Shown: positions 5,985 through 63,532, counted from the stretch's first letter. The stretch: 64,000 bases of DNA from Candidatus Uhrbacteria bacterium (GCA_021413945.1 JAIOPK010000006.1:124001-188000), one strand, 5' to 3'. The notes: generated by a model from the letters alone, not told the origin. A program made the numbers and translations.

Positions 5985-6001
5985 TGTGTTACGATTTCTT
6001 T

Positions 6002-6460
6002 ATGAAGTCGATCCTGATACGCGCCACGCCGATTTCACTCGGCGGTTCCGTTTTAGCCGGCTTGCTTCTGCTTGTCGGTGCATTGGTATGGATCGCGTTT
6101 CAACCGCATGAGCCTTCCGTTGCCCTGCGTGTCACGCTTTTGACCGTCTGGGTCGGACTTCTTGCCTACGCCGCCGATGCGTGGAGTGAACGGATTGAAT
6201 ATGAAGGCGGACGGATTTCTTTCAACTCATTTTTCAAGAAGCGGGTGGAGATCGTCCTGCGACTTACGGACGACATTCTCGTCGTGCATGAAGGCTTGAA
6301 TCAGGAGCGCGGTATTATTTCGGTACGATTTCGTGAACGCGGAGGTCGCCTCATTGAGTGGCCGCTCGGACCCCTGTGGCATCGCCATCACCTTGAGGCA
6401 TTTTTTTCCGCATTAGAAAAAGAAGCTGGGAAGAAAAAAATGTTTGAACAGGTCCGCTGA
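6002..6460 (+). CDS. Membrane protein with two N-terminal helices, unknown
   Basis: 152 aa from the Met at 6002 (MKSILIRATPISLGG). Two hydrophobic segments at about residues 12-34 and 40-57 are followed by a soluble domain of about 90 aa with alternating beta-like segments (RIEYEGGRISFNSFFKKRVE), reminiscent of bacterial PH-like domains after a membrane hairpin. No family is certain. TACGAT lies 6 nt before the ATG with no SD, so the mRNA is probably leaderless. The next gene starts 20 nt downstream with its own -10. Confidence 0.75.
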   Translation: MKSILIRATPISLGGSVLAGLLLLVGALVWIAFQPHEPSVALRVTLLTVWVGLLAYAADAWSERIEYEGGRISFNSFFKKRVEIVLRLTDDILVVHEGLNQERGIISVRFRERGGRLIEWPLGPLWHRHHLEAFFSALEKEAGKKKMFEQVR

Positions 6461-6480
6461 CAATCTGATACAATCATTCC

Positions 6481-7299
6481 ATGCCTCGACTTCCACAAAA
6501 GAAAAAGAACGCCTCCAAAAAGAAGTCTTCCGCAAAGACAAAGTTTTTTCCGCAGCCGAGTTGGTCCGGGCCGCATCCGAGTACGGGTACGCCAGCCACG
6601 CACCGCTTCAAGCATTGGGTTTGCAGTGATAACAACACCTGCGTCCCTTGGGAGGGGGATAGTTTTACGGACAATATCAACTGGCGCATCTTCCGCATCA
6701 TGGCGGAGTTTGTGGAAGGGTTTGAGTTTTTGTCGAACCTGCATCGGGAAGTGACATTCTTTGGTTCGGCGCGCGCACTTCCCGAACATGCGTCCTATAA
6801 GATTGCCCGCGAACTTGGGGGGTTATTGGCCAAGGATGGTTACACGGTTATTACCGGTGGCGGCCCTGGCATTATGGAAGCGGGTAATCGCGGGGCATTT
6901 GAGGCCGGTGGAGAATCGGTCGGACTCGATATCGTTTTGCCGACGGAACAGCGTCGCAACAAATACGTCAGAAAATCCAAAGGTTTTCACTACTTTTTTA
7001 CACGCAAAGTCATGCTCTCGGCTTCAGCTCAAGCATATGTCTTTTTTCCGGGAGGTTTTGGGACTCTCGACGAATTGTTTGAAGTCGTGACGCTGATCCA
7101 GACCGGTAAAATGTCGGACCAGGTACCGCTCATCCTTGTTGGAAAAGCGTACTGGTCCGGCATGCTCGACTGGATCAAGAAAGTCATGCTCGAGAAAAAT
7201 CATTATATCGAACCGTTTGATATCGATATCATGCAGCTGGTCGATACGCCGGAAGAGGCCTTGAAGATTATCCGCAAAACTCCCGAGCGGCAGTTGTAA
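6481..7299 (+). CDS. LOG family protein (TIGR00730-type Rossmann fold)
   Basis: 272 aa. The core has both family motifs: GGGPGIMEAGNRGAFEAGG (nucleotide-binding, equal to the PGGxGTxxE-associated GGxxGxMG region) and PGGFGTLDELFEV, the catalytic PGGxGTxxE motif. LOG proteins are phosphoribohydrolases that cleave nucleoside 5'-monophosphates (cytokinin activation in plants); many bacterial members are annotated as lysine decarboxylase in error. The N-terminal 60 residues are basic and Pro/Lys-rich (PQKKKNASKKKSSAK), an extension of unknown use. TACAAT lies 6 nt before the ATG. Ends at a bidirectional terminator shared with rpmB. Confidence 0.9.
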   Translation: MPRLPQKKKNASKKKSSAKTKFFPQPSWSGPHPSTGTPATHRFKHWVCSDNNTCVPWEGDSFTDNINWRIFRIMAEFVEGFEFLSNLHREVTFFGSARALPEHASYKIARELGGLLAKDGYTVITGGGPGIMEAGNRGAFEAGGESVGLDIVLPTEQRRNKYVRKSKGFHYFFTRKVMLSASAQAYVFFPGGFGTLDELFEVVTLIQTGKMSDQVPLILVGKAYWSGMLDWIKKVMLEKNHYIEPFDIDIMQLVDTPEEALKIIRKTPERQL

Positions 7300-7301
7300 A
7301 C

Positions 7302-7334
7302 AAAAAATCCTCCGTATCTGACGGAGGATTTTTT
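7302..7334. terminator. Bidirectional terminator between LOG gene and rpmB
   Basis: 14-bp perfect stem AAAAAATCCTCCGT / ACGGAGGATTTTTT with loop ATCTG. T-tracts on both strands mean it can end both the plus-strand LOG transcript and the minus-strand rpmB transcript. Confidence 0.92.
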
Positions 7335-7338
7335 TTGC

Positions 7339-7587
7339 TTACTTTTTTGCGGCGAATGTTGCTTTCTTGGCGGCTTTCTTTTGCTTGCGGGTCGGAATCT
7401 CGCCGTGAGCGATGGCGGCGGCGCGCTTAAGGGAGCGGACCGTGCGCGTGGAAACGCGAATACGCTTCCCTCCGATGCGGATGGTTTGCAAATTCACGTG
7501 CTGTTTACGCTTGGTAGCGATGTTGGAGTGGCTTCGCGAATTTGCCGTGTTGGCGCGCTTGCCAGTCAGTTGGTCGATGCGGGACAT
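7339..7587 (-). CDS. rpmB: 50S ribosomal protein L28
   Basis: 82 aa. The start MSRIDQLTGKRANTANSRSH matches the L28 N-terminus, with the usual first Cys of the zinc-type proteins replaced (RIDQ rather than RICQ). The middle IRIGGKRIRVSTRTVRSLKR is the L28 signature, and a Lys/Ala-rich tail follows. Monocistronic, with a consensus promoter and only about a 5-nt leader. Confidence 0.92.
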   Translation of the reverse strand: MSRIDQLTGKRANTANSRSHSNIATKRKQHVNLQTIRIGGKRIRVSTRTVRSLKRAAAIAHGEIPTRKQKKAAKKATFAAKK

Positions 7588-7599
7588 AGGAATGGCGGA

Positions 7600-7628
7600 A
7601 TATTAGCGGAGACCCGTCCCTTTGTCAA
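7600..7628 (-). promoter_or_regulatory. rpmB promoter
   Basis: Minus strand TTGACA (7628-7623), 17-nt spacer, TAATAT (7605-7600); the ATG follows the -10 by 12 nt. A very strong promoter with a nearly absent leader and no SD, which supports the short-leader pattern seen elsewhere. Confidence 0.85.
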
Positions 7629-7655
7629 CGGTCGTGGATATGAGAGAATGCCGTC

Positions 7656-9263: not shown

Positions 9264-9269
9264 AAAAAT

Positions 9270-9296
9270 GAGACCGCAGACAAGGTCTGCGGTCTC
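9270..9296 (+). terminator. Terminator-like hairpin between rpsG and fusA
   Basis: 12-bp perfect stem GAGACCGCAGAC / GTCTGCGGTCTC, 3-nt loop, then TTTC, located in the 46-nt gap. It likely reduces but need not abolish read-through into fusA, for which no obvious separate promoter is seen. Confidence 0.8.
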
Positions 9297-9309
9297 TTTC
9301 TAACACTAT

Positions 9310-11629: not shown

Positions 11630-11672
11630 GAAATAGCTATTTCTAAGGCTAAGGTTAGCCACGTGGTATACT
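11630..11672 (+). promoter_or_regulatory. Three adjacent dyads and -10 before the ABC exporter
   Basis: GAAATAGCTATTTC (11630-11643, perfect palindrome), GGCTAAGGTTAGCC (11647-11660, 6-bp arms) and CCACGTGG (11659-11666) lie side by side immediately upstream of TATACT (11667-11672), the -10 placed 7 nt before the ATG. This is a plausible operator region for a transcription factor controlling the exporter. Confidence 0.5.
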
Positions 11673-15846: not shown

Positions 15847-16449
15847 ATGAAATTCATTCTGGGCGAAAAACTCGAGATGTCGCAGGTCTATGCGGCGGAC
15901 GGCACGGTAGTTCCCGTGACGCTCGTGAAAGCCGGACCCTGCATTGTTACGCAAGTCAAAACCGCCGAAAAGGACGGCGTTGCTGCCGTTCAAATCGGTT
16001 TTCAAAATCATAAGAACGCCACCAAGCCGGAAGCAGGTCACTTGAAAGATTTGCCGCCGATGCGTGTCCTTCGCGATTTCCGTGTCGAGAGCGATTCTAC
16101 GCTCAAGCGCGGCGATGCGATCGAGGCCGGTATCTTCCAGCCGGGAGAGACCGTCAACGTTGTCGGTCAGTCCAAAGGTAAGGGCTTCCAGGGTGTTGTG
16201 AAGCGCCATGGTTTCCATGGTCATCCAAAATCCCACGGTCACAAGGACCAGGAACGTATGCCGGGTTCCATTGGAGCCGGTGGTCCTCAGCACGTTTTCA
16301 AGGGACGCCGCATGGGCGGTCACATGGGTGACGAACGCGTCACGGTCAAGAATCTCGAAGTCGTCGAGATTCGCGACGGCGGTATCATCGCTCTCAAGGG
16401 CGCGGTACCGGGCGCACGCCACACAATTATTGAAATCCATTCCGCCTAA
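15847..16449 (+). CDS. rplC: 50S ribosomal protein L3
   Basis: 200 aa. The signature KGKGFQGVVKRHGFHGHPKS and the GSIGAGGPQHVFKGRRMGGH loop, which reaches toward the peptidyl-transferase centre, are intact. First gene after the attenuator-like gap; rplD begins 1 nt after its stop codon with no SD. Confidence 0.98.
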   Translation: MKFILGEKLEMSQVYAADGTVVPVTLVKAGPCIVTQVKTAEKDGVAAVQIGFQNHKNATKPEAGHLKDLPPMRVLRDFRVESDSTLKRGDAIEAGIFQPGETVNVVGQSKGKGFQGVVKRHGFHGHPKSHGHKDQERMPGSIGAGGPQHVFKGRRMGGHMGDERVTVKNLEVVEIRDGGIIALKGAVPGARHTIIEIHSA

Positions 16450-16450
16450 T

Positions 16451-17077
16451 ATGACGAGCATTTCTCTCTACAGCCAAGACGGCAAAGCCGTCGGTGAACT
16501 CGCTCTCAACGAGGCGTTGTTTGGTATCAAGCCCAACAAGGCGCTTGTGCACGAGGTCATGGTTGCTCAGCGCAACAATGCCCGCCGTTCCATCGCCAGC
16601 ACCAAGACCAAGGGTGAAGTTAGCGGTGGTGGTAAAAAGCCATGGAAGCAGAAGGGTACGGGCCGCGCCCGCCAAGGTTCCATCCGCAGCCCGCAGTGGG
16701 TTGGTGGTGGTATCGCTTTTGGTCCGCTTTCCGAACGTAATTTTTCGCAAAAAGTAAACAAGAAGGCCAAGCGCACGGCTTTGCTTATGGCATTGTCCGA
16801 CAAGGTCCTCGACAAGAAGATGATCGCGATCGAATCGATCAAGACGGAATCGCCCAAGACCAAGGTCATGGCCGAGATGATCAAGAAGTTGCCGCTTGAT
16901 CGCAACACGCTTTTGGTGGCACCGGCTTCCAATCCGTCCTTGCTCCGCATGGTACGCAACATTCCTAACGTCAAACTCGTGACCGTTAACAGCGTGAACT
17001 TGAACGACGTTCTTACGTATCGCTCAGTCGCCTTCCTCAAGGACGCGGTTGCGGCTTTTGAGAAGATTTACGCCTAA
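16451..17077 (+). CDS. rplD: 50S ribosomal protein L4
   Basis: 208 aa from MTSISLYSQDGKAVGELALN at 16451; the longer in-frame reading from 16208 overlaps rplC and is not used. The exit-tunnel loop KKPWKQKGTGRARQGSIRSP is intact. In many bacteria L4 represses its operon via the S10 leader, making it the likely ligand of the structures at 15225 or 15745. rplW follows after 4 nt. Confidence 0.97.
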   Translation: MTSISLYSQDGKAVGELALNEALFGIKPNKALVHEVMVAQRNNARRSIASTKTKGEVSGGGKKPWKQKGTGRARQGSIRSPQWVGGGIAFGPLSERNFSQKVNKKAKRTALLMALSDKVLDKKMIAIESIKTESPKTKVMAEMIKKLPLDRNTLLVAPASNPSLLRMVRNIPNVKLVTVNSVNLNDVLTYRSVAFLKDAVAAFEKIYA

Positions 17078-17081
17078 ACAT

Positions 17082-17501
17082 ATGGCTATTCTCGACCGAT
17101 TCCTCAAGAAAGATGAAGCTCCGGCTAAGAAGCCGGCTGCGAAGAAAGCTGTTGCCAAAAAAACTGTCGCCAAATCGGAAAAGTCGGACAAGCCGGCTGT
17201 GACAAGCAAGGTTGATCCTCAAGCGCTCCGTCTTTTGACCAAGCCGCACGTCAGTGAAAAGGCCGCTCGTCTTGCCGATGCCGGAACCTACGTCTTCCAA
17301 GTCCCGATGAATGCCGAGAAGGTATCCATCCGCAAGGCGGTCGAGTCGCTGTACGGCGTCAACGTCGAGGCTGTCCGTATTATCCGTACATCGGGTAAGC
17401 CTGTCCGCCGCGGCAAGCGCGTCACGTTCCGACACGATGTTAAAAAGGCACTCGTCACCTTGAAGAAGGGACAGACGCTTAGCCTGTACGAAGGAGTCTA
17501 A
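17082..17501 (+). CDS. rplW: 50S ribosomal protein L23, with N-terminal extension
   Basis: 139 aa. The L23 core starts near residue 45 (LLTKPHVSEKAARL) and includes VNVEAVRIIRTSGKPVRRGK. The first 40 residues are a Lys/Ala-rich low-complexity extension (KKPAAKKAVAKKTVAKSEK) not found in ordinary L23. L23 sits at the tunnel exit and docks trigger factor, SRP and SecY. rplB starts 4 nt downstream. Confidence 0.95.
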   Translation: MAILDRFLKKDEAPAKKPAAKKAVAKKTVAKSEKSDKPAVTSKVDPQALRLLTKPHVSEKAARLADAGTYVFQVPMNAEKVSIRKAVESLYGVNVEAVRIIRTSGKPVRRGKRVTFRHDVKKALVTLKKGQTLSLYEGV

Positions 17502-17505
17502 TCAT

Positions 17506-18345
17506 ATGCCTATTAAGAAAATTCGCCCGAACCATTCCGGGTCGCGAAATCTCTCGGTGCAGAGCTTTGCCGACGTCACCTCGACGGAACCGGAAAAGTC
17601 TCTCATCTCGTTCCGCAAGTCCAATGCGGGTCGTTCGCTTGGAAAGATTACCGTGCGCCATCAGGGCGGCGGCGCTCGTCGTTATCTGCGCGAAGTCGAT
17701 TTCAAGCGCACGCGCTTTGATATTCCGGCTACGGTCGCGACGATCGAATACGATCCGAACCGCGGAGCTCGTATCGCCCTTATCAACTACAAGGATGGCG
17801 TGAAGAGCTACATTCTTGCTCCGGAAGGTTTGAAGGTTGGCGACATTGTCGTCTCGTCGATGAACGAAGCGGAAATTTCCGTCGGTAACCGTTTGCCGCT
17901 TTCCAAGATTCCGCTGGGTGCACTGGTACACTCGGTTGAGCTCGCTCCCGGAAAGGGCGGTCAGCTTGGACATGGCGCCGGTTCGCGTATTGAGTTTATG
18001 GCGTTGGAAGACGAGTGGGCCGCATTGAAACTTCCGTCCGGTGAAGTTCGCCGCGTTCCTCAATCCTGCATGGCGACGATCGGTACGGTATCCAACCCCG
18101 ACTGGCACTTGGTCCGCTGGGGCAAGGCCGGCCGCATGCGACATCGCGGTATTAAGCCGACGGTTCGCGGTAAGGTCATGAACCCGGTTGATCACCCGCA
18201 CGGAGGTGGTGAAGGTAAACATCCGATCGGTATGAAGTACGCCAAGACCAAGTGGGGCAAGCACGCTCTCGGCGTGAAGACCCGCAAAGGACACCTCTCC
18301 AGCAATAAACTCATTATTTCGCGCCGTAAGGGTAAGACCCTCTAA
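17506..18345 (+). CDS. rplB: 50S ribosomal protein L2
   Basis: 279 aa. It has the N-terminal KSLISFRKSNAGRSLGKITV block and the conserved C-terminal GKVMNPVDHPHGGGEGKHPI, including the histidine required for peptidyl-transferase assembly. Tightly packed between rplW and rpsS (9-nt gap). Confidence 0.98.
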   Translation: MPIKKIRPNHSGSRNLSVQSFADVTSTEPEKSLISFRKSNAGRSLGKITVRHQGGGARRYLREVDFKRTRFDIPATVATIEYDPNRGARIALINYKDGVKSYILAPEGLKVGDIVVSSMNEAEISVGNRLPLSKIPLGALVHSVELAPGKGGQLGHGAGSRIEFMALEDEWAALKLPSGEVRRVPQSCMATIGTVSNPDWHLVRWGKAGRMRHRGIKPTVRGKVMNPVDHPHGGGEGKHPIGMKYAKTKWGKHALGVKTRKGHLSSNKLIISRRKGKTL

Positions 18346-18354
18346 TCCACGCCT

Positions 18355-18678
18355 ATGTCACGAAGTCTCAAAAAGGGCCCGTTCATCGACGAGAAACTTC
18401 TCGCCAAGGTGAGAAAAGCCGGCCCCGGATCCAAGACCGTCATCAAGACCTGGTCACGTGCATCCACGATCACACCTGAAATGGTGGGAATGACGTTTGG
18501 CGTGCATAACGGCAAGATTCATATCCCCGTGCATGTCGTGGAGAACATGGTCGGCCACAAGCTGGGCGAATTTTCCCAGACGCGCAAGTTTGTTCGTCAT
18601 GGAGGCAAGTTAGCTAAGACGACCGATGCCGCCGCCGCTCCGGCTCCTGCCGCCGCCGCTCCGGCCGCCAAGAAATAA
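18355..18678 (+). CDS. rpsS: 30S ribosomal protein S19, with Ala/Pro tail
   Basis: 107 aa. The core [19 protein letters not shown] to [16 protein letters not shown] is canonical. The last 18 residues form an Ala/Pro repeat tail ([16 protein letters not shown]) absent from ordinary S19 proteins. rplV begins 1 nt after the stop. Confidence 0.96.
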
Positions 18679-18679
18679 T

Positions 18680-19105
18680 ATGGATGTACACGCTTCCCTC
18701 CGCTTCCTCCGCATGTCGCCCCGCAAGGTCCGACTCGTGGTTGATGCTATCCGTGGCTTGTCGGTGACTGCCGCCGAAACCAAGCTTAACTTCTTGCCAA
18801 AGCTTGCCGCCCAACCGGTGCACAAGCTGTTGCGTTCCGCGATGGCCAATGCCGATCATAATTTTCATTTGAAGCCGGAAACGCTTTTCGTCAAAACCAT
18901 CGTCGCCGACGGAGGTCCGACCTTGAAGCGCTCACGTCCGCGCGCTTTTGGCCGTGCGGCACCGATCCGCAAGCGCACGACGCATATCACGCTCGTGCTC
19001 TCGGATGAGAAGCCTGTTGCCAAAGCCAAGAAGTCCAAGAAAGTCATCAAGACCGTTGCTACTAAGAAGTCCGTAAAGGCTCCGAAGTCGGAGGCTAACG
19101 CCTAA
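18680..19105 (+). CDS. rplV: 50S ribosomal protein L22, with basic tail
   Basis: 141 aa from MDVHASLRFLRMSPRKVRLV. The extended beta-hairpin region RPRAFGRAAPIRKRTTHITL, which lines the exit tunnel, is present. A 30-residue Lys/Ala-rich C-terminal tail (KAKKSKKVIKTVATKKSVK) is an addition. rpsC starts 4 nt later. Confidence 0.96.
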   Translation: MDVHASLRFLRMSPRKVRLVVDAIRGLSVTAAETKLNFLPKLAAQPVHKLLRSAMANADHNFHLKPETLFVKTIVADGGPTLKRSRPRAFGRAAPIRKRTTHITLVLSDEKPVAKAKKSKKVIKTVATKKSVKAPKSEANA

Positions 19106-19109
19106 TCCT

Positions 19110-19916
19110 ATGGGACATAAAGTAAATCCAAAAGTCTTCCGTCTCGGTACGACCACCACATGGCCGTCTCGCTGGATGGCACGTGACGATGCGTATCGCG
19201 CCAACTTGCGCCAGGATTTGGCGATCCGCGATTTCCTCAGAAAGGATCTCAAGGATGCCGCGATCAGCCGTATTGAAATCGAGCGCTCTCGTGGAACGAT
19301 GGCTGTGACGGTTCATTCCGCCAAGCCCGGTCTCGTGATCGGCCGCTCCGGCGAAGGAGCCGACGGATTGAAGAAGAAATTGCTCAAGAAGTTTTTCCCG
19401 AGCAAAGCCAAGAGCGTTCAGCTCGCGGTGAATGTCGTCGAAATCGGCCGCCCGTCATTGGACGCCGCTCTCGTCGTACAAGGCGTGATCGCCGACCTCG
19501 AGCGCCGCATGCCGTTCCGCCGCGTGCTCAAGATGTCGATCGAGCGCGTGAAGAAAGGTGGCGCACTCGGTGTGAAGGTTGCCGTGTCCGGTCGTTTGAA
19601 CGGTGCGGAAATTGCCCGCCGCGAATGGTTGGCTTGGGGCAAGATTCCGCTCACCAACTTGCGCGCCGACATCGACTATGCCGCCGACGCCGCCCGCACG
19701 ATGGCGGGAGCCATCGGTGTAAAAGTCTGGATTTATCGCGGCGACGTGTTTGCGCAGGATCGTTTGAATCAATACCAGCCGACGACGCCGTCCCGCGGTC
19801 GTGGCGGTCGCGATACCGATCGCGCCCCGCGTTCCGCTCCTCGCGCCCCGCGCGGAGAAGCTGCCTCATTCGCCCCAACGGATAAGCCGGAACCGGCTGC
19901 TCCCGCTGTCTCATAA
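19110..19916 (+). CDS. rpsC: 30S ribosomal protein S3
   Basis: 268 aa. The start MGHKVNPKVFRLGTTTTWPS, the KH-domain motif KPGLVIGRSGEGADGLKKKL (GxxG-like loop) and VSGRLNGAEIARREW of the C-terminal domain are typical. A 40-residue RGG/Pro/Ala-rich tail (SRGRGGRDTDRAPRSAPRAP) follows the core. S3 lies at the mRNA entry and helps helicase activity. Confidence 0.96.
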   Translation: MGHKVNPKVFRLGTTTTWPSRWMARDDAYRANLRQDLAIRDFLRKDLKDAAISRIEIERSRGTMAVTVHSAKPGLVIGRSGEGADGLKKKLLKKFFPSKAKSVQLAVNVVEIGRPSLDAALVVQGVIADLERRMPFRRVLKMSIERVKKGGALGVKVAVSGRLNGAEIARREWLAWGKIPLTNLRADIDYAADAARTMAGAIGVKVWIYRGDVFAQDRLNQYQPTTPSRGRGGRDTDRAPRSAPRAPRGEAASFAPTDKPEPAAPAVS

Positions 19917-19925
19917 CCCACTCGT

Positions 19926-20336
19926 ATGTTGATTCCAAAAAAAGTCAAACACCGCAAGTGGCATAAGGGCCGCGCGCGAAACATCCGTGTCGCAACAACC
20001 AAACTTGAACTCTCGTTTGGTAGCTACGGCCTGAAGGCGATGACCCCGGCTTGGATCTCAAGCCAGGAAATCGAAGCAGGACGCCGCGTCCTTACTCGCT
20101 ACATTAAGAAAGGTGGAAAGGTCTGGATCCGTGTTTTCCCGGACAAGCCGATCACCAAGAAAGGAAACGAAGTGCCGATGGGATCCGGTAAAGGTGCGGT
20201 CGACCACTACGTCGCCGTCGTACGCGCCGGCACCGTGATCTACGAGATGGACGGCATCCCGGCCGATCAGGCCAAGATCGCGCTTCAGAGCGCGGCTTAC
20301 AAATTGAGTCCGGTCTGTAAGTTCATTAGCAACTAA
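19926..20336 (+). CDS. rplP: 50S ribosomal protein L16
   Basis: 136 aa, usual length. It begins [20 protein letters not shown] and carries the conserved [20 protein letters not shown] and [14 protein letters not shown] motifs. L16 contacts A-site tRNA near the peptidyl-transferase centre. rpmC begins 1 nt after its stop. Confidence 0.98.
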
Positions 20337-20337
20337 T

Positions 20338-20541
20338 ATGTCTAAAGAACTTCAGCAGAAGTCCGCCGCCGAGCTCACACGCGAGGCCGCCGACCTGCAA
20401 GGCACGATCCGCGAACTCCGGTTCAAGATCGCGACCCGCCAGCACGGAAAAGTCCGCGAGATGCGCAGCAAGAAGCGCGAGCTCGCACGACTCCTCACCG
20501 CTATCGCTTCCAAACCCAAGTCCGAAGCCAAAAACGCCTAA
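20338..20541 (+). CDS. rpmC: 50S ribosomal protein L29
   Basis: 67 aa helical-hairpin protein. The central ADLQGTIRELRFKIATRQH and REMRSKKRELARLLTAI segments match L29. L29 sits near the tunnel exit next to L23. The junction with rplP is TAATATG, without SD. Confidence 0.94.
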   Translation: MSKELQQKSAAELTREAADLQGTIRELRFKIATRQHGKVREMRSKKRELARLLTAIASKPKSEAKNA

Positions 20542-20546
20542 CCCAT

Positions 20547-20807
20547 ATGACATCCACTAACACAAACAATCCACGCCGCCTCCAAGGCGTTGTCGTTTCC
20601 ACGGCAATGCAGAAGACGGCTGTGGTCCGCGTGGACCGTCGTGTGGCTCATGCAAAGTACGGTAAGTACTTCACGCTTTCCAAAAAGTTCAAGATCCACG
20701 ATCCGGACAGCGTTTGCAAGATGGGCGACGTCGTCGAGTTCCAGGAAACGCGACCGATTTCCAAGGACAAGCACTTCAAGTATTTGTCTACGGTTTCTCA
20801 AGCCTAA
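20547..20807 (+). CDS. rpsQ: 30S ribosomal protein S17
   Basis: 86 aa OB-fold protein with [20 protein letters not shown] and [20 protein letters not shown], both characteristic. It lies 5 nt after rpmC and 1 nt before rplN. Confidence 0.96.
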
Positions 20808-20808
20808 T

Positions 20809-21180
20809 ATGGTTCAACATCGATCCATGCTCACCGTCGCCGACAACACGGGAGCCAAACTTCTCCAGGTGATTCAGGTCACCGGAGGTTATAAGAAGCG
20901 TTACGGCATGCTCGGCGATGTCGTTACTTGCGTCGTCAAGATCGCCGATCCGCGCGGAACCGTGAAGAAGTCGGACGTGGTGAAAGCGGTTCTCGTGCGC
21001 ACGCGCAAGGAGACACGCCGCCCGGACGGCACGTATATCCGTTTTGATGAGAACGCCGGCGTCATCATCGACCTTAAGAATAAGGAACCCAAAGGTACGC
21101 GTATCTTTGGACCTGTCGCTCGTGAACTGCGCGGTCGTGGCTATGCCAAGATCGTGTCGCTCGCACCGGAAGTCCTCTAA
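20809..21180 (+). CDS. rplN: 50S ribosomal protein L14
   Basis: 123 aa from [20 protein letters not shown]; an upstream in-frame reading overlaps rpsQ and is discarded. Further signatures are [20 protein letters not shown] and [21 protein letters not shown]14 forms the inter-subunit bridge B8 and is the RsfS docking site. Confidence 0.98.
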
Positions 21181-21184
21181 GACT

Positions 21185-21454
21185 ATGAAACTCCAAATTA
21201 AATCCGGCGACGAAGTCATCGTCATTGCCGGCAAGAACAAGGGAAAGAAGGGGAAAGTCGTGCAAACGCTTCCCTTGCTTAACCGTGTCGTAGTCGAGGG
21301 CGTGAACATGACAAAGCGCCACATGCGCTCGCGACGTACAGAGGACAAGGGTCAGGTCATCGAATTTGCGATGCCGATCCACGCGTCGAATGTCCAGCCT
21401 GTTGGTTCTAACGGTAAACCGATGCGCCACTCCAAGGCGCGTAAGACTGCCTAA
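21185..21454 (+). CDS. rplX: 50S ribosomal protein L24
   Basis: 89 aa. KOW motif GDEVIVIAGKNKGKKGKVVQ followed by VVVEGVNMTKRHMRSRR is diagnostic. L24 is an assembly initiator near the tunnel exit. Start at 21185, 4 nt after rplN. Confidence 0.96.
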   Translation: MKLQIKSGDEVIVIAGKNKGKKGKVVQTLPLLNRVVVEGVNMTKRHMRSRRTEDKGQVIEFAMPIHASNVQPVGSNGKPMRHSKARKTA

Positions 21455-21459
21455 CCCAT

Positions 21460-21996
21460 ATGACACTTCAAGAACGCTACAATAAGGAGATCGTTCCGGC
21501 TCTTACCAAAGAGTTCGGTATCGAGAACCGCATGGCCGTCCCGAAGGTCACGTCGGTTACGCTTTCCGTCGGTTTGTCGCAGGGGATCAAGGATCCCAAG
21601 GTGCTCGACACCGTCGAACAGACCTTGCTCCGCATCACCGGACAAAAACCGGTGAAGACCAAGGCCAAGAAATCCATCGCGAGCTTTAAAATCCGCGAGG
21701 GAATGATCGTTGGCATGATGGTTACGCTTCGTGGCAAGCGCATGTGGGATTTTCTCACGCGCTTTACCCAGTTCACCTTCCCGCGTATCCGCGACTTCCG
21801 CGGTATCTCAAAGCAGGGAATTGACGGTCGCGGCAACTTTTCCATCGGCTTCCGTGAGAACCTCGCGTTCCCGGAAATCCGTCCGGATGAAGTCGAGCGC
21901 GTCCATGGCCTCCAAGTCACCGTGTCCACCACGGCCGGAACCCGCGAGCGCGGTGAAGCGCTCCTGCGCGCTCTCGGTTTCCCATTCAACAACTAG
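21460..21996 (+). CDS. rplE: 50S ribosomal protein L5
   Basis: 178 aa. Conserved blocks KVTSVTLSVGLSQGIKDPKV, LRITGQKPVKTKAKKSIASF and RDFRGISKQGIDGRGNFSIG identify L5, which binds 5S rRNA in the central protuberance. rpsN starts 3 nt after its stop. Confidence 0.98.
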   Translation: MTLQERYNKEIVPALTKEFGIENRMAVPKVTSVTLSVGLSQGIKDPKVLDTVEQTLLRITGQKPVKTKAKKSIASFKIREGMIVGMMVTLRGKRMWDFLTRFTQFTFPRIRDFRGISKQGIDGRGNFSIGFRENLAFPEIRPDEVERVHGLQVTVSTTAGTRERGEALLRALGFPFNN

Positions 21997-21999
21997 TCT

Positions 22000-22185
22000 A
22001 TGGCTACTCAAGCGCAAATCGCCAAGTCCCTCCGCAAGCCAAAGTTTTCCACCCGTGAAGTGCGCCGTTGCTGGCGCTGCGGGCGCAAGCACGCGTTCAT
22101 GCGCGACTTCGGAATCTGCCGCATCTGCTTCCGTGAGCTTGCCAACCGCGGCGAGTTGCCCGGTGTGACCAAATCAAGCTGGTAA
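22000..22185 (+). CDS. rpsN: 30S ribosomal protein S14, zinc-binding type
   Basis: 61 aa, the short type-Z form. Two CxxC pairs (CWRC and CRIC) build the zinc ribbon, and [17 protein letters not shown] is the canonical C-terminus. S14 completes the 30S head. Confidence 0.97.
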
Positions 22186-22189
22186 TCCT

Positions 22190-22582
22190 ATGTATACCGA
22201 TCCAATCAGCGACTTCCTGACCCGCATTCGCAACGCGTATGCGGCCGGGCTCGACACGATGAGCGTGCCGGGTTCGCGTATCAAACTTTCTATCGCCAAG
22301 GTCCTTGAGCGTGAAGGCTTTATCGCCGGCGTCAAGGAAACAACCGTCGGCCCCAAAAAATCGTTTTCCGTGACGTTGAAGTACGATGGAAAAATTCCGG
22401 CCGTCCGTTCCATCGACCGTATCTCAACTCCGGGCCGCCGCGTCTACGCCAAGTATACGGAACTCCGTCCGGTCCTTTCCGGACAGGGTATCGCTATCTT
22501 GTCGACGTCAGCCGGTCTTATGACCAACAAAGAGGCTCGTCGCCGAAAGCTCGGCGGTGAAGTGCTTTGCGAAGTCACCTAA
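22190..22582 (+). CDS. rpsH: 30S ribosomal protein S8
   Basis: 130 aa, starting MYTDPISDFLTRIRNAYAAG. The C-terminal GQGIAILSTSAGLMTNKEAR and GGEVLCEV are hallmark S8 sequence (STSxGxMT). In E. coli S8 represses the spc operon. rplF begins 10 nt later. Confidence 0.98.
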   Translation: MYTDPISDFLTRIRNAYAAGLDTMSVPGSRIKLSIAKVLEREGFIAGVKETTVGPKKSFSVTLKYDGKIPAVRSIDRISTPGRRVYAKYTELRPVLSGQGIAILSTSAGLMTNKEARRRKLGGEVLCEVT

Positions 22583-22592
22583 TTCCAACTCT

Positions 22593-23141
22593 ATGTCTCG
22601 TATTGGTAAAAAACCGATTCTCCTGCCCTCGGGCATCGACCTCACGGTCGAGGCTGGGAAGGTGATCGTGAAGGGCCCCAAGGCTACACTCACGGTTCCG
22701 CTTCCTCCGCACTCGATTGTCACGCTTGAAACCGAGCCGCGCAGCGCCGTCGTGAATGTTGAACTTCCGGATAACGTGTATCAACGCGCTATTTGGGGCC
22801 TGACTCGCCAGCTCATCGCCAACGCGGTGGAAGGTTTGCAAAAGCCTTACGAGAAGTCTCTCGAGTTTGTCGGCGTCGGCTACAAAGTCGCGCTGGAAGG
22901 AAAGACCGTCGTCATGGACGTGGGTTTTTCTCATAATATTAAATTCCCACTGCCGGAAGGTATCGAGGCAAAAGTCGACAAACAGGTGTTGACGATTTCC
23001 GGTGCCGACAAGCAGATGGTCGGCGAGCTCGCCGCCCAGATCCGCCGCAAGCGTCCGCCGGAGCCTTATAAGGGCAAGGGTGTGAAGTACACGGATGAAA
23101 CGATTCGCCGCAAAGCCGGTAAGACCGCAAAGACCGCCTAA
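22593..23141 (+). CDS. rplF: 50S ribosomal protein L6
   Basis: 182 aa from MSRIGKKPILLPSGIDLTVE at 22593. The C-terminal RRKRPPEPYKGKGVKYTDE is the L6 signature that contacts the sarcin-ricin loop. Nine nt of CT-rich sequence separate it from rplR. Confidence 0.98.
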   Translation: MSRIGKKPILLPSGIDLTVEAGKVIVKGPKATLTVPLPPHSIVTLETEPRSAVVNVELPDNVYQRAIWGLTRQLIANAVEGLQKPYEKSLEFVGVGYKVALEGKTVVMDVGFSHNIKFPLPEGIEAKVDKQVLTISGADKQMVGELAAQIRRKRPPEPYKGKGVKYTDETIRRKAGKTAKTA

Positions 23142-23150
23142 CCTCCTCCT

Positions 23151-23510
23151 ATGTCTCTCAACACTTCTACCGCCCGCGCCCGCCGTGTCGCGCGCGTGCG
23201 TGCCAAGGTCACCGGCTCGAGCGAGCGACCGCGTCTTACGGTTGCCCGTACGCTCGCGCATATCTATGCGCAAGTTATCGATGACCGTGCCGGCAAGACA
23301 CTCGCCGCCGCAAGCGACGCCGATGTTTCCGCCGCCGACCGCAAGGGCAAGACTAAGTCCGAGATTTCGACGATGGTGGGCAAACTCATTGCCGAGCGTG
23401 CCAAGGCAAAAGGTATTTCGTCGGTCGTTTTTGACCGCCGCGACAAGCGTTATCATGGCCGTGTGAAAGCCGTCGCTGACGGTGCGCGCGAAGCCGGATT
23501 GACTTTCTAA
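23151..23510 (+). CDS. rplR: 50S ribosomal protein L18
   Basis: 119 aa, starting near [40 protein letters not shown] is the conserved C-terminal block. L18 binds 5S rRNA with L5. The start is preceded by CCTCCTCCT, a pyrimidine tract rather than an SD. Confidence 0.96.
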
Positions 23511-23514
23511 TCTT

Positions 23515-24231
23515 ATGATCGAAGAAACAAACCAGCCAATTCCGGAAGCCGTCGTTCCGGTCGAGCCTAGCTCGACTCCGGCTCCGACGCCCGCCGCGAA
23601 ACCCGCCCCTGCCGCCGCACCAGCCGGTGCGCGTGGCGCTTATCGTCCCGGCGGCCGACCCGGTGATCGCCGTGGCGGTCCCGGAGGCGGAGGCGCCGGC
23701 GGACGTGGAGGCCGCGGAGGCGGTCGTGATCGCCGTCCGCGTATGGATGTGCCGGCAGAAGCCGACTACGAAGAAAAGAATATTGAAGTCGCTCGTGTCA
23801 CGCGTGTGACCAAGGGTGGTAAGCGCATGCGCTTCCGCGTCTTGACCGTCATCGGCAACCGTAAGGGCCGAGCCGGATACGGACTTGCCAAGGGTGTCGA
23901 CGTTGCCGGTGGAACGGCCAAGGCAACGACACAGGCACGCAAGGCCTTGTTCACAGTTCCGCTTGTGAAGGGAACAATTCCGCATGCCGTGGAAGCCAAG
24001 TTTGGCGCCGCGTATGTGATCTTGAAACCGGCTCCGGAAGGTACGGGGGTCAAGGCCGGTGGCGCCGTGCGCATCGTGCTTGAACTTGCCGGCGTTCCAA
24101 ACGTCGTGTCCAAGATTCTTGGTTCCAAGAACAAGACCAACAACGTGAAAGCGACGTTTGCCGCACTCCGCAAGCTCCGTTTGTCCACTCGTACGGCAGC
24201 CGCTCAGGCTCCCGTCGAGAAGACCGCATAA
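23515..24231 (+). CDS. rpsE: 30S ribosomal protein S5, with RGG-rich extension
   Basis: 238 aa, about 70 longer than usual. The S5 core begins near residue 85 (NIEVARVTRVTKGGKRMRFR) and includes GNRKGRAGYGLAKGVDVAGG and the C-terminal NVVSKILGSKNKTNNVKATF. Residues 1-80 are Pro/Ala-rich followed by an RGG/Gly-Arg box (GGGGAGGRGGRGGGRDRR), probably disordered and RNA-binding. rplO follows after 6 nt; rpmD (L30), expected here, is absent. Confidence 0.96.
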   Translation: MIEETNQPIPEAVVPVEPSSTPAPTPAAKPAPAAAPAGARGAYRPGGRPGDRRGGPGGGGAGGRGGRGGGRDRRPRMDVPAEADYEEKNIEVARVTRVTKGGKRMRFRVLTVIGNRKGRAGYGLAKGVDVAGGTAKATTQARKALFTVPLVKGTIPHAVEAKFGAAYVILKPAPEGTGVKAGGAVRIVLELAGVPNVVSKILGSKNKTNNVKATFAALRKLRLSTRTAAAQAPVEKTA

Positions 24232-24237
24232 ACTATT

Positions 24238-24675
24238 ATGTCTCTTACTCTCAACAACCTCGCGCCCAAATTTGGTTCGCGCTCCAAGCGATTCCGCATC
24301 GGTCGAGGACCGGGAAGCGGACGCGGAAAGACCGCCGGAAAAGGTACCAAGGGTCAGAAGTCCCGTACCGGTGGTAGCCATAAGCTCAAACTCAAAGGTT
24401 TGAAGCAGATGTTGCTGTCCTTCCCAAAGAACCGCGGTTTCAAGAGCCGTTACGCCAAGGTTGCCGCTATTCCGCTCAAGCGCCTCTCGGTGTTTGCCAA
24501 CGGAGAAGAGGTGTCGATGGCGACCCTTCGCGAGAAAGGCATCATTGGCCGCAGCGATCGTGAAGCCAAGATTGTCGGCAGCGGAGCATTCGATAAGAAG
24601 CTGACCGTGAATGGCGTTGCCGTTACGGCCGGTTCCAAAGCGTCGATTGAAGCAGCAGGCGGTTCCGTCAAATAA
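24238..24675 (+). CDS. rplO: 50S ribosomal protein L15
   Basis: 145 aa. The N-terminal glycine-rich GRGPGSGRGKTAGKGTKGQK and C-terminal VNGVAVTAGSKASIEAAGGS are typical of L15. Directly upstream of secY as in the spc operons of most bacteria. Confidence 0.97.
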   Translation: MSLTLNNLAPKFGSRSKRFRIGRGPGSGRGKTAGKGTKGQKSRTGGSHKLKLKGLKQMLLSFPKNRGFKSRYAKVAAIPLKRLSVFANGEEVSMATLREKGIIGRSDREAKIVGSGAFDKKLTVNGVAVTAGSKASIEAAGGSVK

Positions 24676-24696
24676 CTCTTCGTTTTTCTTCGCTCT

Positions 24697-25974
24697 ATGT
24701 GGGATAAGCTCATGCAAGCCTGGAAGGTAAAAGAGGTACGCAATGGCCTCCTCTTTGTCCTCGGAATGATGGTCATCTTCCGTGTCATGGCCAATATTCC
24801 GCTCCCGGGAGTCGACCTTGTCGCGCTCAAGCGTTTCTTTGACGCGAACCAGGTGCTCGGACTTCTGAACTTGTTCTCGGGCGGTACGATTGAGAACTTC
24901 AGCATCGTCGCGTTGGGTGTCGCTCCGTATATTACGGCGTCGATTATCTTCCAGCTCTTGGCGATGATTTTCCCGCGTCTTGAGGAAATCCAGAAAGACG
25001 GGGAGGCCGGACAGCGCCGTATTAACCAGTGGACGCGCATGCTGACGATCCCGCTCGCGATTGTTCAATCGTTTAGCTTGCTGCAATTGCTCAAGCAATC
25101 GCAAACGCCGATTTTGACCAACAGCGATCCGCTTCACATTGTGATGATTATCGCGTCGGTGACCGGCGGAACGATGCTGCTTATGTGGATGGGCGAGCTC
25201 ATGAGCGAGAAGAAAGTTGGTAACGGTATCTCATTGCTCATCTTTGCCGGTATTATTGCCGGATTGCCGAGCTCGCTTTCCCAGCTTCTTGCGACGACCG
25301 ATGCAACGCAGTGGTTTACTTATGTCCTGTACGCCGCCGTGGCGGTCGGTATGGTTGCCGGTGTCGTGTTTGTGTCGGAAGGCCAGCGCAATGTGCCGGT
25401 GCAGTACGCGCGACAGTCGCGCGGGATGAGTAGCGGTCTCGGCGGCGTAGGCTCGTCGCTTCCGCTCCGTGTCAACTTGACCGGCGTTATTCCGATCATT
25501 TTTGCCATCTCGCTGTTGTTGTTCCCGTCCGTGATCGCTCAGTTCTTTACGCAGGCCCATACGGCATGGGTCGCGCAGGCTGCGACGTGGGTGATCGTGA
25601 CGCTGCAGAATCAGCTGGTGTATGGCATCCTCTACTTTTCACTCGTCGTCATCTTCACCTACTTCTATACGTCGATCGTGTTTCACCCGGATCGCATCGC
25701 CGAAAACATTCAGAAGCAGGGCGGATTTATTCCGGGCATTCGTCCGGGTAAGCCGACGGCCGATTATTTGCAGAGCGTCGTGAACCGCATCACGCTCGGA
25801 GGCGCGCTTTTCCTCGGCATCATTGCCGTCGCCCCGCTCATCGCGGAAGGTGCTCTTGGAACGCGTTTGATCGCGCTTGGCGGTACGTCGATCTTGATCG
25901 TCGTTTCCGTGGTGGTTGAATCGATCAAGCAGATCCAGTCGCAAATTACGATGCGCGAGTACGACGTGTACTAG
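24697..25974 (+). CDS. secY: Preprotein translocase subunit SecY
   Basis: 425 aa, ten predicted membrane helices. VFRVMANIPLPGVD in TM1, the GGTIENFSIVALGVAPYITA plug/TM2 region and the cytosolic loop NPADIAENIQKQGGFIPGIR-like sequence (here HPDRIAENIQKQGGFIPGIR) are diagnostic. With SecE and SecA, also in this window, it forms the Sec channel that would export the surface proteins at 42-54 kb. Confidence 0.97.
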   Translation: MWDKLMQAWKVKEVRNGLLFVLGMMVIFRVMANIPLPGVDLVALKRFFDANQVLGLLNLFSGGTIENFSIVALGVAPYITASIIFQLLAMIFPRLEEIQKDGEAGQRRINQWTRMLTIPLAIVQSFSLLQLLKQSQTPILTNSDPLHIVMIIASVTGGTMLLMWMGELMSEKKVGNGISLLIFAGIIAGLPSSLSQLLATTDATQWFTYVLYAAVAVGMVAGVVFVSEGQRNVPVQYARQSRGMSSGLGGVGSSLPLRVNLTGVIPIIFAISLLLFPSVIAQFFTQAHTAWVAQAATWVIVTLQNQLVYGILYFSLVVIFTYFYTSIVFHPDRIAENIQKQGGFIPGIRPGKPTADYLQSVVNRITLGGALFLGIIAVAPLIAEGALGTRLIALGGTSILIVVSVVVESIKQIQSQITMREYDVY

Positions 25975-31346: not shown

Positions 31347-31458
31347 GGAATGAGTATAGCTTTAGGACCATTTTTTGCCCAATAGAAGGCCATTTTATAG
31401 GTTTTTGCTGGACGGGAAGAAACAAAAGGTGTTTAACGGCGTAGTAATCATAGGTCGC

Positions 31459-34693: not shown

Positions 34694-34757
34694 ACTATAG
34701 GCGTCTAATCTGTACAAGGCAAAGCCGTTTGCGATGCGGGTAGGTCAATGTTATGCT
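34694..34757. promoter_or_regulatory. Divergent promoters, DUF817 and FAD oxidoreductase
   Basis: Minus strand: TTGCCT (34722-34717), 17 nt, TATAGT (34699-34694), 6 nt, ATG. Plus strand: TTGCGA (34729-34734), 17 nt, TATGCT (34752-34757), 11 nt, ATG. The two -35 boxes are 6 nt apart, so the genes may be co-regulated; both have ultrashort leaders. Confidence 0.7.
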
Positions 34758-37686: not shown

Positions 37687-37715
37687 AGCGTATGTTTTTG
37701 CTCCTCTCTTGTCAA
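37687..37715 (-). promoter_or_regulatory. Promoter of the amine-oxidase-like gene
   Basis: Consensus TTGACA, 17-nt spacer, TACGCT; the ATG is 10 nt past the -10, so the 5' leader would be about 3 nt. The strong -35 makes this the best anchored short-leader example in the window. Confidence 0.8.
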
Positions 37716-39055: not shown

Positions 39056-39086
39056 TGTTTGACGGTCGTGCTATGATCGGCTGTAT

Positions 39087-39900: not shown

Positions 39901-39928
39901 TTTTGCACTTGTGCTAAGGTTATTTGAT

Positions 39929-44614: not shown

Positions 44615-44705
44615 AAAGGGCGATTGTAAATGAATAGTCCACGCAAGAATTACTATAACACATTATTTGATTAAAAATGTGTATAAGTGGTAGCTTTTTA
44701 CATAG

Positions 44706-50515: not shown

Positions 50516-50521
50516 TATAAT
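50516..50521 (+). promoter_or_regulatory. -10 of the beta-helix protein gene
   Basis: Consensus TATAAT 6 nt before the ATG; the -35 is weak (CCATAA at 17 nt). The best -10 hexamer among the leaderless examples. Confidence 0.7.
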
Positions 50522-53941: not shown

Positions 53942-53967
53942 CCGCCTGTCTCTGCTAGAGTCCCGCC

Positions 53968-55817: not shown

Positions 55818-55827
55818 GGACAGAGTG

Positions 55828-55856
55828 TAGACAGGAAGTGAAAAGTAGGCTAGGGT
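55828..55856 (+). promoter_or_regulatory. Promoter of the 55883 gene, overlapping the glyA -10
   Basis: TAGACA (55828-55833), 17-nt spacer, TAGGGT (55851-55856); SD GGAGGT at 55874-55879. The -35 shares two bases with the minus-strand glyA -10 (55824-55829), so the two promoters should exclude one another. Confidence 0.65.
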
Positions 55857-58834: not shown

Positions 58835-58850
58835 GCTAGGCTTTATCTGT

Positions 58851-59174: not shown

Positions 59175-59203
59175 AAAAAGACGCCTTGTAAGGGGCGTCT
59201 TTT
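59175..59203 (+). terminator. hpf terminator
   Basis: Stem AAAAAGACGCC / GGCGTCTTTTT with a 7-nt loop, right after hpf and just before the secA -10. Confidence 0.88.
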
Positions 59204-59223
59204 TGGGCTAAGATCGGCCAACT

Positions 59224-61950: not shown

Positions 61951-61965
61951 TTATAATGGCTTTGT

Positions 61966-62436
61966 ATGGCCAAGACATTGACCCTCGTTTATCTCCGTCG
62001 AGGTGATGAGATTCTTTTAGGGTATAAGAAAAGGGGATTTGGGATGGGGCAATGGAATGGATTGGGTGGAAAGGTTGAGGAGGGCGAGGAAGTTGGTGAG
62101 AGTGCTCGACGTGAGGCACGTGAAGAGGCCGGGATTGAAGTTGGTGCGCTTCGGAAGTTCGCCATTATTGAATGTGATTATCGGAATGTGGAAAAGCCCG
62201 GTGTTCTCGAGATTCACATGTTTGAGTCGTCGGATTTTAAGGGCGAGCCTGTCGAAACGGAGGAAATTAAACCGCAATGGTTTAAGATTTCGGAATATCC
62301 GTTCGACAAAGCTTGGCCTGATGATCGGTATTGGTTTCCTTTTTACATCGAGGGAAAGACGTTTCGTGGGAGCTTTCTTTTTGACGGGTACGATAAAATT
62401 ACGTCGTACGAAATTATTGAAACGCTGGTCGACTAG
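61966..62436 (+). CDS. Nudix hydrolase, 8-oxo-dGTPase (MTH1)-like
   Basis: 156 aa. The Nudix box GGKVEEGEEVGESARREARE followed by EAGIEV fits GX5EX7REUXEEXGU. The layout (VYLRRGDEILLGYKKRGFGM, then GQWNGLGGK) is that of MTH1-type enzymes that remove oxidised purine nucleotides. Consensus TATAAT lies 8 nt before the ATG. Its stop TAG and the stop of the convergent methyltransferase share CTAG. Confidence 0.9.
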   Translation: MAKTLTLVYLRRGDEILLGYKKRGFGMGQWNGLGGKVEEGEEVGESARREAREEAGIEVGALRKFAIIECDYRNVEKPGVLEIHMFESSDFKGEPVETEEIKPQWFKISEYPFDKAWPDDRYWFPFYIEGKTFRGSFLFDGYDKITSYEIIETLVD

Positions 62437-63230
62437 TTCATTTTACGAGCGCGCAATCCGAGGAACAGAGGGATTTCTTTACGGGCGACGTTTTCTGCCT
62501 TCGCTTTGGGGCCGGAGTCGCTGACTTTGTTTGACACCCATTCTTCGAGTGCTTCTATCACAAAGCCGTACTTGGCGAGTTCGGTGACGTACATCGAAAG
62601 AGGTCGATGATACGAGTAGGTTTTTTCTTCCGGTGCGGAACCGGGATGTGCGATGATCGGCATTTCGTAGTCGGTCATGTATTTGTCGACGCGGCGGTAT
62701 TGGAGTTTGCGCTCTTCATCCCAGCCCCAGCCGCTTTGGCGCGGCTGTCGGAATGCGGGGTGATTCATCGTGATGACGAGGACGCCATCGGGTTTGAGTG
62801 CGCGAGCCGCTTCGGAAAAGACGAGCGTGAGCGGATCGATGTTTTGGATCGCGAGGTTGCACACGATTCCGTCGAGGGAGTTCGGCGGAAAAAGATGGGA
62901 AAAGTTGGTGGCGTCATCGACGGTGAAGCGCACATTTTTTGGAGCGATTCTTTTGGCTTGGTCGATCAAGCTCGGTGAGGCATCCAGTCCATCGACTTTG
63001 AAAGCTTTTGGTGCGAGGAGTTTTGCGAACACGCCTTGACCGCAAGCGAGGTCGAGGTAGTGGCCGTCCTTTTTTGGAGCAAGTAAACGTAGCGCACCGG
63101 GGAAGATGAGATCGCGTTGGAAGTCGCCGCCCTCTTTGCCCATGTAGCCCCCATACCACCCGGCGACGGATTCCCAGCTGGATTTGGGGCCGACGACCAC
63201 TTTACGGCCTCGTCCTCGAATAGATCGCAT
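62433..63230 (-). CDS. Class I SAM-dependent methyltransferase
   Basis: 265 aa from MRSIRGRGRKVVVGPKSSWE. Motif I DLACGQGVFAKLL, motif II GLDASPSLIDQAK, motif III NVRFTVDDATNFS and motif IV DGIVCNLAIQNIDPL define a small-molecule-type methyltransferase (UbiE/Methyltransf_11 style). Substrate unknown. TAGCAT lies 9 nt before the ATG; the promoter region is shared with the divergent small membrane protein gene. Confidence 0.88.
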   Translation of the reverse strand: MRSIRGRGRKVVVGPKSSWESVAGWYGGYMGKEGGDFQRDLIFPGALRLLAPKKDGHYLDLACGQGVFAKLLAPKAFKVDGLDASPSLIDQAKRIAPKNVRFTVDDATNFSHLFPPNSLDGIVCNLAIQNIDPLTLVFSEAARALKPDGVLVITMNHPAFRQPRQSGWGWDEERKLQYRRVDKYMTDYEMPIIAHPGSAPEEKTYSYHRPLSMYVTELAKYGFVIEALEEWVSNKVSDSGPKAKAENVARKEIPLFLGLRARKMN

Positions 63231-63280
63231 ATGCACGGTATGCTACACTGTCAGCATATTCCTACAATATGGGCTTTATC

Positions 63281-63532
63281 ATGCGCGTGCTTCTCGGGTT
63301 GGTGATCGTTGCGGTCGGTGCGTTCTTTGTCATTCGGACGCGCACGATCGTCGACTTTTTTGGCGGTGTCGACTTTGCAGAGAAATATCTGGGCGGCGGT
63401 GGGACGAATTTGTTCTATAAGCTGCTCGGTATCGTTTTCTGTCTTCTCGGTTTCCTGATCGCAACCAATATGTGGACGGCGTTTCTGCAAGCGACGCTTG
63501 GGTCCTTGTTTCCGGCGGCTCAACCAAAATAA
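63281..63532 (+). CDS. Small membrane protein, unknown
   Basis: 83 aa from MRVLLGLVIVAVGAFFVIRT. The Met at 63269 is also possible but TACAAT lies immediately before it, so the start of transcription probably falls between them. Two hydrophobic helices (about 2-20 and 48-68) flank a segment with GGGGTNLFYKLLG. Unknown function. The following gene begins 2 nt after the stop, so they form an operon. Confidence 0.7.
   Translation: MRVLLGLVIVAVGAFFVIRTRTIVDFFGGVDFAEKYLGGGGTNLFYKLLGIVFCLLGFLIATNMWTAFLQATLGSLFPAAQPK

What the first reader, a model, noticed from the sequence alone, without database searches (positions are those of the whole stretch)
5990..63281. Widespread leaderless or near-leaderless transcripts
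In many genes a TANNNT -10 hexamer sits 6-9 nt before the start codon and there is no SD. Examples: 6002 TACGAT+6; 6481 TACAAT+6; 31346 TATACT+6; 34687 TATAGT+6; 50528 TATAAT+6; 53968 TAGAGT+6; 55817 TACACT+6; 11680 TATACT+7; 61966 TATAAT+8; 58851 TAGGCT+8; 39929 TAAGGT+8; 44614 TACAAT+8; 39087 TATGAT+9; 59224 TAAGAT+9. Three have a full -35 at 17 nt: 34687, 37676 (TTGACA-17-TACGCT-10-ATG) and 7587 (TTGACA-17-TAATAT-12-ATG). Transcription would start at or within a few bases of the ATG. Such -10 placement is known in Deinococcus and Actinobacteria; here it appears to be the default for single genes, including secA, engB and glyA.
Basis: partly seen in the sequence, partly recalled or inferred. 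Interest (0 to 1): 0.75.

Follow-up and report, generated by a model that had tools for sequence, protein, structure and literature searches.

The report
Leaderless genes in a Patescibacteria genome
In this tiny-genome bacterium of the Candidate Phyla Radiation, and in most relatives sampled, many genes carry their promoter so close to the start codon that the messenger RNA should begin at or a few bases before the protein-coding part, so the usual ribosome landing site (Shine-Dalgarno) cannot be used.

Summary
In 464 kb of this 1.05-Mb genome (Patescibacteria, near Ca. Uhrbacteria), with starts called from coding potential alone, TANNNT peaks at T = -12, exactly 6 nt before the start codon: 34 of 359 genes against 5.0 in dinucleotide shuffles. 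One base closer it falls to 4. The hexamers are promoters: TTGACA-like sequences stand 17 bp upstream (33 of 113, against about 3.5 at other spacings) and 43 of 113 have an extended TGN. The peak recurs in the family, class and a 20-family sample of the phylum; it is absent in E. coli and present in Deinococcus deserti.

About 40% of genes heading a transcription unit show it (roughly 30% net of chance). Another 10-15% use a normal Shine-Dalgarno; the anti-Shine-Dalgarno is intact.

Less expected: operon-distal genes almost never have a Shine-Dalgarno (0 of 101) and carry U at -1 (67%, against 11% before internal ATGs). Where the transcript would start on the ATG itself, -1 is only a pyrimidine.

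This signature is known in Actinobacteria and Deinococcus. Patescibacteria is a new lineage of a known kind. No transcript ends were mapped.

The parts
5990..5995 (+). -10 TACGAT, extended TGN, 6 nt before ATG 6002; a terminator hairpin ends 17 nt before the ATG
6469..6474 (+). -10 TACAAT, extended TGN, 6 nt before ATG 6481 (lysine-decarboxylase/LOG-like SLOG family)
7600..7605 (-). -10 TAATAT 12 nt before ATG 7587 (ribosomal protein bL28); TTGACA 17 bp upstream
11667..11672 (+). -10 TATACT, extended TGN, 7 nt before ATG 11680 (ABC transporter)
31353..31358 (-). -10 TATACT 6 nt before ATG 31346 (DUF4015 putative glycosyl hydrolase)
34694..34699 (-). -10 TATAGT 6 nt before ATG 34687 (DUF817); -35 TTGCCT, 4/6 only, at 17 bp
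37687..37692 (-). -10 TACGCT 10 nt before ATG 37676 (flavin amine oxidoreductase); TTGACA at 17 bp
39072..39077 (+). -10 TATGAT, extended TGN, 9 nt before ATG 39087 (peptide methionine sulfoxide reductase, msrA)
39915..39920 (+). -10 TAAGGT, extended TGN, 8 nt before ATG 39929 (leucine-rich repeat protein)
44623..44628 (-). -10 TACAAT 8 nt before ATG 44614 (no family match)
50516..50521 (+). -10 TATAAT, extended TGN, 6 nt before ATG 50528 (1137-aa peptidoglycan-binding protein)
53956..53961 (+). -10 TAGAGT, extended TGN, 6 nt before ATG 53968 (EngB-type GTPase)
55824..55829 (-). -10 TACACT 6 nt before ATG 55817 (glyA, SHMT); a TANNNT at spacer 6-14 is kept in 17 of 18 family genomes
58837..58842 (+). 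-10 TAGGCT 8 nt before ATG 58851 (S30AE/HPF ribosome-hibernation family)
59209..59214 (+). -10 TAAGAT 9 nt before ATG 59224 (secA); the best -35 (TTGTAA, 17 bp) lies in the loop of a terminator-like hairpin
61952..61957 (+). -10 TATAAT 8 nt before ATG 61966 (NUDIX)
15847..25974 (+). long co-directional gene run with short stop-to-start gaps (order looks like the ribosomal-protein operon; genes not individually identified): distal genes joined as TAA-(1 to 10 nt)-T-ATG, essentially no SD

Best explanation
In this Patescibacteria genome and most of its relatives, ordinary sigma-70-type promoters (TTGACA-17-TAtaaT, often with extended TGN) sit so that +1 falls on the A of the ATG (hexamer-to-ATG spacer 6) or a few nt upstream (spacers 7-14, predicted leader 1-8 nt). 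The first gene of many transcription units is therefore read from a leaderless or near-leaderless mRNA. Translation must then start on a 5'-terminal AUG without Shine-Dalgarno pairing, presumably by 70S or IF2-assisted binding. SHOWN here: the promoter elements, their register, positional enrichment, conservation, and the lack of room for a leader behind terminators. INFERRED: the actual 5' ends and the mode of ribosome binding.
For: Sharp peak at -12 with a cut-off at -11. Best fits from random seeds find TAtaaT, decoys never. -35 at 17 bp in 33 of 113 against about 3.5 per other spacing, TGN in 43 of 113 against 7.5; the -35 peak repeats in family (22), class (13) and phylum (29) samples. 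glyA keeps TANNNT at spacer 6-14 in 17 of 18 family genomes against 3 of 18 in a control window; secA likewise in most genera. Fourteen genes have a strict intrinsic terminator ending 7-38 nt before the start codon, several with the -10 wedged between. At spacer 6 the -1 base is C or T (17 C, 12 T of 31), an initiator-like pyrimidine; at spacers 8-14, where -1 would be transcribed, it is T in 53 of 65 (p = 5e-5; repeats in family p = 0.004 and class p = 0.03). Controls: E. coli none, D. deserti peak at -12.
Against: No transcript data. Only about 40% of transcription-unit-first genes show TANNNT in the window; the rest are unassigned or SD-led. A few Patescibacteria samples show no peak (G086, G028). 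The U(-1) contrast does not repeat at phylum scale (p = 0.75). Genes may have additional promoters further upstream.
Confidence: 0.9

Rival explanations
1. The AT-rich hexamer is a translation signal (an A/U-rich enhancer or S1 site on a longer leader), as has been suggested for some SD-poor phyla, and not a promoter.
For: Nakagawa et al. 2017 (PMC5397173) note that AT bias at -20 to -10 cannot always be attributed to leaderless promoters. A bS1-like protein with four S1 domains is encoded.
Against: A TTGACA-like element exactly 17 bp upstream and TGN directly upstream of the hexamer are promoter features with no translational role. The hard edge at spacer 6 fits a transcription start that cannot pass the ATG.
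Confidence: 0.04
2. The annotated starts are too far upstream; the true starts are downstream ATGs with normal leaders.
For: Starts are predictions; 59 of 360 moved between the coding-only and motif-aware models.
Against: SecA N-termini align to the first residue in most relatives, and GlyA starts are consistent across the family. The peak appears with starts called without the motif and is as strong or stronger for confident starts.
Confidence: 0.03
3. The near-ATG promoters are real but secondary; most mRNA comes from upstream promoters or operon read-through with ordinary leaders.
For: Many genes are co-directional with short gaps; some distal genes also carry such a -10 (20 of 106 at spacer 6-12).
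Against: Intrinsic terminators directly upstream of several such genes; divergently placed first genes show the signal too; most of these upstream regions have no SD.
Confidence: 0.1

Closest known systems
TA-led (leaderless) genes of Actinobacteria and Deinococcus-Thermus (Zheng et al. 2011, PMC3160421)
   Same: Same TANNNT Pribnow-like core about 10 bp before the start codon, tested against dinucleotide shuffles; same inference of leaderless mRNA.
   Different: That survey of genomes available in 2010 does not list Patescibacteria. It describes distal operon genes as usually needing SD; here distal genes have essentially none (0 of 101) despite an intact anti-SD.
GeneMarkS-2 class of bacterial genomes with leaderless transcription (described in the StartLink paper PMC9581028)
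   Same: Promoter signal close to the start used to predict leaderless transcription, up to 40% of transcripts in such genomes.
   Different: No Patescibacteria are discussed in the passages read; the original paper is not in the library.
Deinococcus deserti (positive control computed here)
   Same: TANNNT peak at -12: 6 of 86 against a background of 0.46 per position.
   Different: Distal genes use SD (7 of 14) and lack U(-1) (14%), unlike here.
SD-less Bacteroidetes initiation
   Same: Most genes lack SD; A-rich region upstream of distal starts.
   Different: From general knowledge these genes have leaders. Here many first genes look leaderless and a 10-15% minority keeps a strong SD.

Membership tests
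Leaderless (TA-led) genes | TANNNT located about 10-12 bp upstream of the start codon | tested here: met
   Peak at T = -12
Leaderless (TA-led) genes | Number of such genes exceeds dinucleotide-shuffled sequence | tested here: met
   34 vs 4.95 (max 12); 123 vs 42-57
Leaderless (TA-led) genes | Transcription start at or within a few nt of the start codon | not testable with these tools
   No transcriptome available; only the register and the terminator geometry support it
Sigma-70-type promoter | -35 TTGACA-like element 16-18 bp from the -10 | tested here: met
   33 of 113 at exactly 17 bp, about 3.5 at other spacings; repeated in relatives
Sigma-70-type promoter | Extended -10 TGN allowed when the -35 is weak | tested here: met
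   43 of 113 vs 7.5 expected
Deinococcus/Actinobacteria-type mixed system | Distal operon genes are SD-led | tested here: not met
   0 of 101 (coding-only starts), 1 of 106, family 1 of 96
Bacteroidetes-type SD-less system | SD absent across the genome | tested here: not met
   12-15% of first genes have a strong SD against 0-3% in the control window
Bacteroidetes-type SD-less system | Anti-SD retained in 16S rRNA | tested here: met
   3' end complement of TAGAAAGGAGGTGATCC

The most novel reading that the evidence does not exclude
Much of the Candidate Phyla Radiation, or at least this class, may run a two-part, largely Shine-Dalgarno-free initiation system. Unit-first genes would be leaderless or have leaders of 1-8 nt. 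Operon-distal genes would start by tight stop-start coupling on a U-AUG context that may extend codon-anticodon pairing. The anti-SD would be kept for only a minority of genes. This differs from other leaderless-rich bacteria, where distal genes depend on SD.
Probability: 0.5. Interest if true: 0.7.

Novelty: new member of a known kind. Interest (0 to 1): 0.55.

Why it matters
Patescibacteria are a very large, mostly uncultured branch with small ribosomes and reduced genomes, and how their ribosomes choose start codons is not described in the papers I could search. If leaderless initiation is common there, SD-trained gene finders will mis-place many of their start codons. Promoters could then be read directly from sequence next to the ATG, and the ribosomal minimum for leaderless plus coupled initiation becomes testable. 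The SD-free distal genes with U(-1) are the part a translation specialist would find least expected.

Tried and rejected
A first mixture model without a start-proximal term merged the U(-1) signal with the -10 and was replaced (then 42). Short named contigs (about 4-23 kb) gave weak, noisy profiles because starts are poorly called there, so longer stretches were used. glyA conservation holds strongly in the family but not clearly in other families of the class (7 of 13 against 6 in the control) and only modestly in the phylum (8 of 26 against 3). A TTGACA scan at fixed distance from the ATG shows no sharp peak, as expected if the spacer to the ATG varies. Ten literature searches and two direct DOI look-ups found no report of leaderless transcripts in this phylum, but the library holds only open-licence papers and two key papers were missing.

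Full report
WHERE IT IS. The window lies in a 1.05-Mb, 23-contig genome judged 100% complete. SecA of the window is closest (55-63% identity) to records named Candidatus Uhrbacteria and other Patescibacteria. GC is about 53%, so AT-rich hexamers are not a trivial consequence of composition.

THE OBSERVATION. Only one detail fails: the -35 of gene 34687 is TTGCCT (4/6), not a full match; 37676 and 7587 do have TTGACA at 17 bp. Pfam identifies glyA (SHMT), an EngB-type GTPase, msrA, bL28, an HPF-like protein and others among the downstream genes.

I sampled 464 kb (window plus 20 stretches) and called 360 genes by coding potential only, with no upstream model. TANNNT shows a sharp peak with its T at -12 relative to the start codon: 34 of 359 genes, against 4.95 +/- 2.2 in 200 dinucleotide shuffles. 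It drops to 4 at -11. In a sigma-70 promoter the -10 hexamer occupies -12 to -7 (general knowledge), so T at -12 puts +1 on the A of the ATG. A closer hexamer would start transcription inside the gene, which explains the edge. Extra counts at spacers 7-14 correspond to leaders of 1-8 nt. A mixture model that chooses start and motif together finds TAtaaT at spacers 6-12 in its best-likelihood fits even from random seeds; shuffled decoys never do. With motif-aware starts 123 of 360 genes carry TANNNT at spacer 6-12 against 42-57 in decoys with equal freedom.

IT IS A PROMOTER. The -35 was not used in choosing sites. Among 113 near-ATG hexamers of non-distal genes, TTGACA-like sequence (4/6 or better) occurs 33 times at exactly 17 bp and about 3.5 times on average at any other spacing; TGN precedes 43 of them against 7.5 expected. 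The 17-bp peak repeats in the family, class and phylum samples. In 16 genes a strict intrinsic terminator stands just upstream of the start codon, 14 of them ending 7-38 nt before it. In several, such as gene 6002, the -10 is wedged between terminator and ATG, so no long leader is possible unless transcription reads through. At secA the best -35 lies inside the loop of the terminator-like hairpin, as it does in two congeners.

HOW COMMON. For confident starts, 27 of 62 divergently placed genes and 19 of 29 genes with 16-60 nt same-strand gaps have TANNNT at spacer 6-14, against 4-9 and 3-6 in control windows of equal size. Net of chance this is roughly 30% of divergent first genes and 50% of the short-gap class. 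A strong SD occurs in 12-15% of first genes, and the 16S anti-SD is canonical. So "default" is too strong; "commonest single start signal" is fair.

CONSERVATION. glyA keeps a TANNNT 6-14 nt before the ATG in 17 of 18 genomes of the family (14 of them at spacer 6 or 7) while the surrounding DNA differs; a control window gives 3 of 18. secA shows the same in most genera. The -12 peak appears in most family and class genomes sampled (family pool 37 against 4.5 per position, class pool 28 against 8) and in a sample of 20 other families of the phylum (71 against about 21), though not in every genome (G086 and G028 lack it). E. coli shows none; D. deserti, a known leaderless organism (general knowledge), shows the peak with the same pipeline.

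DISTAL GENES. Operon-distal genes have no strong SD (0 of 101; family 1 of 96), unlike D. deserti (7 of 14) and E. coli (6 of 26) analysed identically. They are joined to the preceding gene by short gaps (typically ATGA overlaps or TAA plus 1-10 nt) and carry T at -1 in 67%, against 11% before internal in-frame ATGs and 0-27% in the control genomes. At transcription-unit starts the same T(-1) bias appears only when that base would be transcribed: 53 of 65 at spacers 8-14, but 12 of 31 at spacer 6, where the base is C or T as expected just before a transcription start (p = 5e-5). This repeats in family (p = 0.004) and class (p = 0.03), not at phylum scale (p = 0.75). I read this as a translational preference for U-AUG, possibly by extended pairing with the initiator tRNA; that mechanism is inference. 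The genome encodes a four-domain S1 protein and weak bS21 matches.

WHAT IS KNOWN. Zheng et al. 2011 describe exactly this TANNNT signature as leaderless genes, richest in Actinobacteria and Deinococcus-Thermus, and state that distal genes usually need SD. The StartLink paper summarises leaderless transcription in 21.6% of bacterial species. None of the papers found reports it for Patescibacteria, within the limits of an open-licence library. I therefore file it as a new lineage of a known kind, with SD-free distal genes as the unusual element.

LIMITS. No 5' ends were mapped. Gene starts are computed. The phylum sample is 20 genomes of 40 kb each. Genes sharing ancestry are not independent, so conservation counts are not probabilities.

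Noticed in passing
window 59180-59224; relatives L053 and L057: Terminator-like hairpin upstream of secA whose loop (TTGTAA or TTGTAC) is also the best -35 for the secA promoter, conserved in two congeners: terminator, promoter and start codon packed in about 50 bp.
   Followed up: partly
window 15847-25974 and operon-distal genes generally: Distal genes lack SD and carry T immediately before ATG (67%, against 11% before internal ATGs), often as TAA-(1 to 10 nt)-T-ATG.
   Followed up: yes
window 9269-9310: A strong hairpin with a T-run lies between rpsG and fusA, ending 13 nt before the fusA ATG, inside what is usually one operon.
   Followed up: no
window 4804, 28650, 55883: A minority of genes do have a strong SD (AGGAGG or GGAGGT) at normal distance; what sets these genes apart was not examined.
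   Followed up: no
G043 and G086 stretches (L261-L262, L243-L244): Some Patescibacteria families differ: G043 uses SD in 5 of 8 distal genes, and G086 shows no -12 peak but SD in 8 of 29 genes, suggesting gain or loss of SD use inside the phylum.
   Followed up: no
G000:C2:65765-66766: A 387-aa protein with four S1 domains, a shortened bS1 candidate.
   Followed up: no
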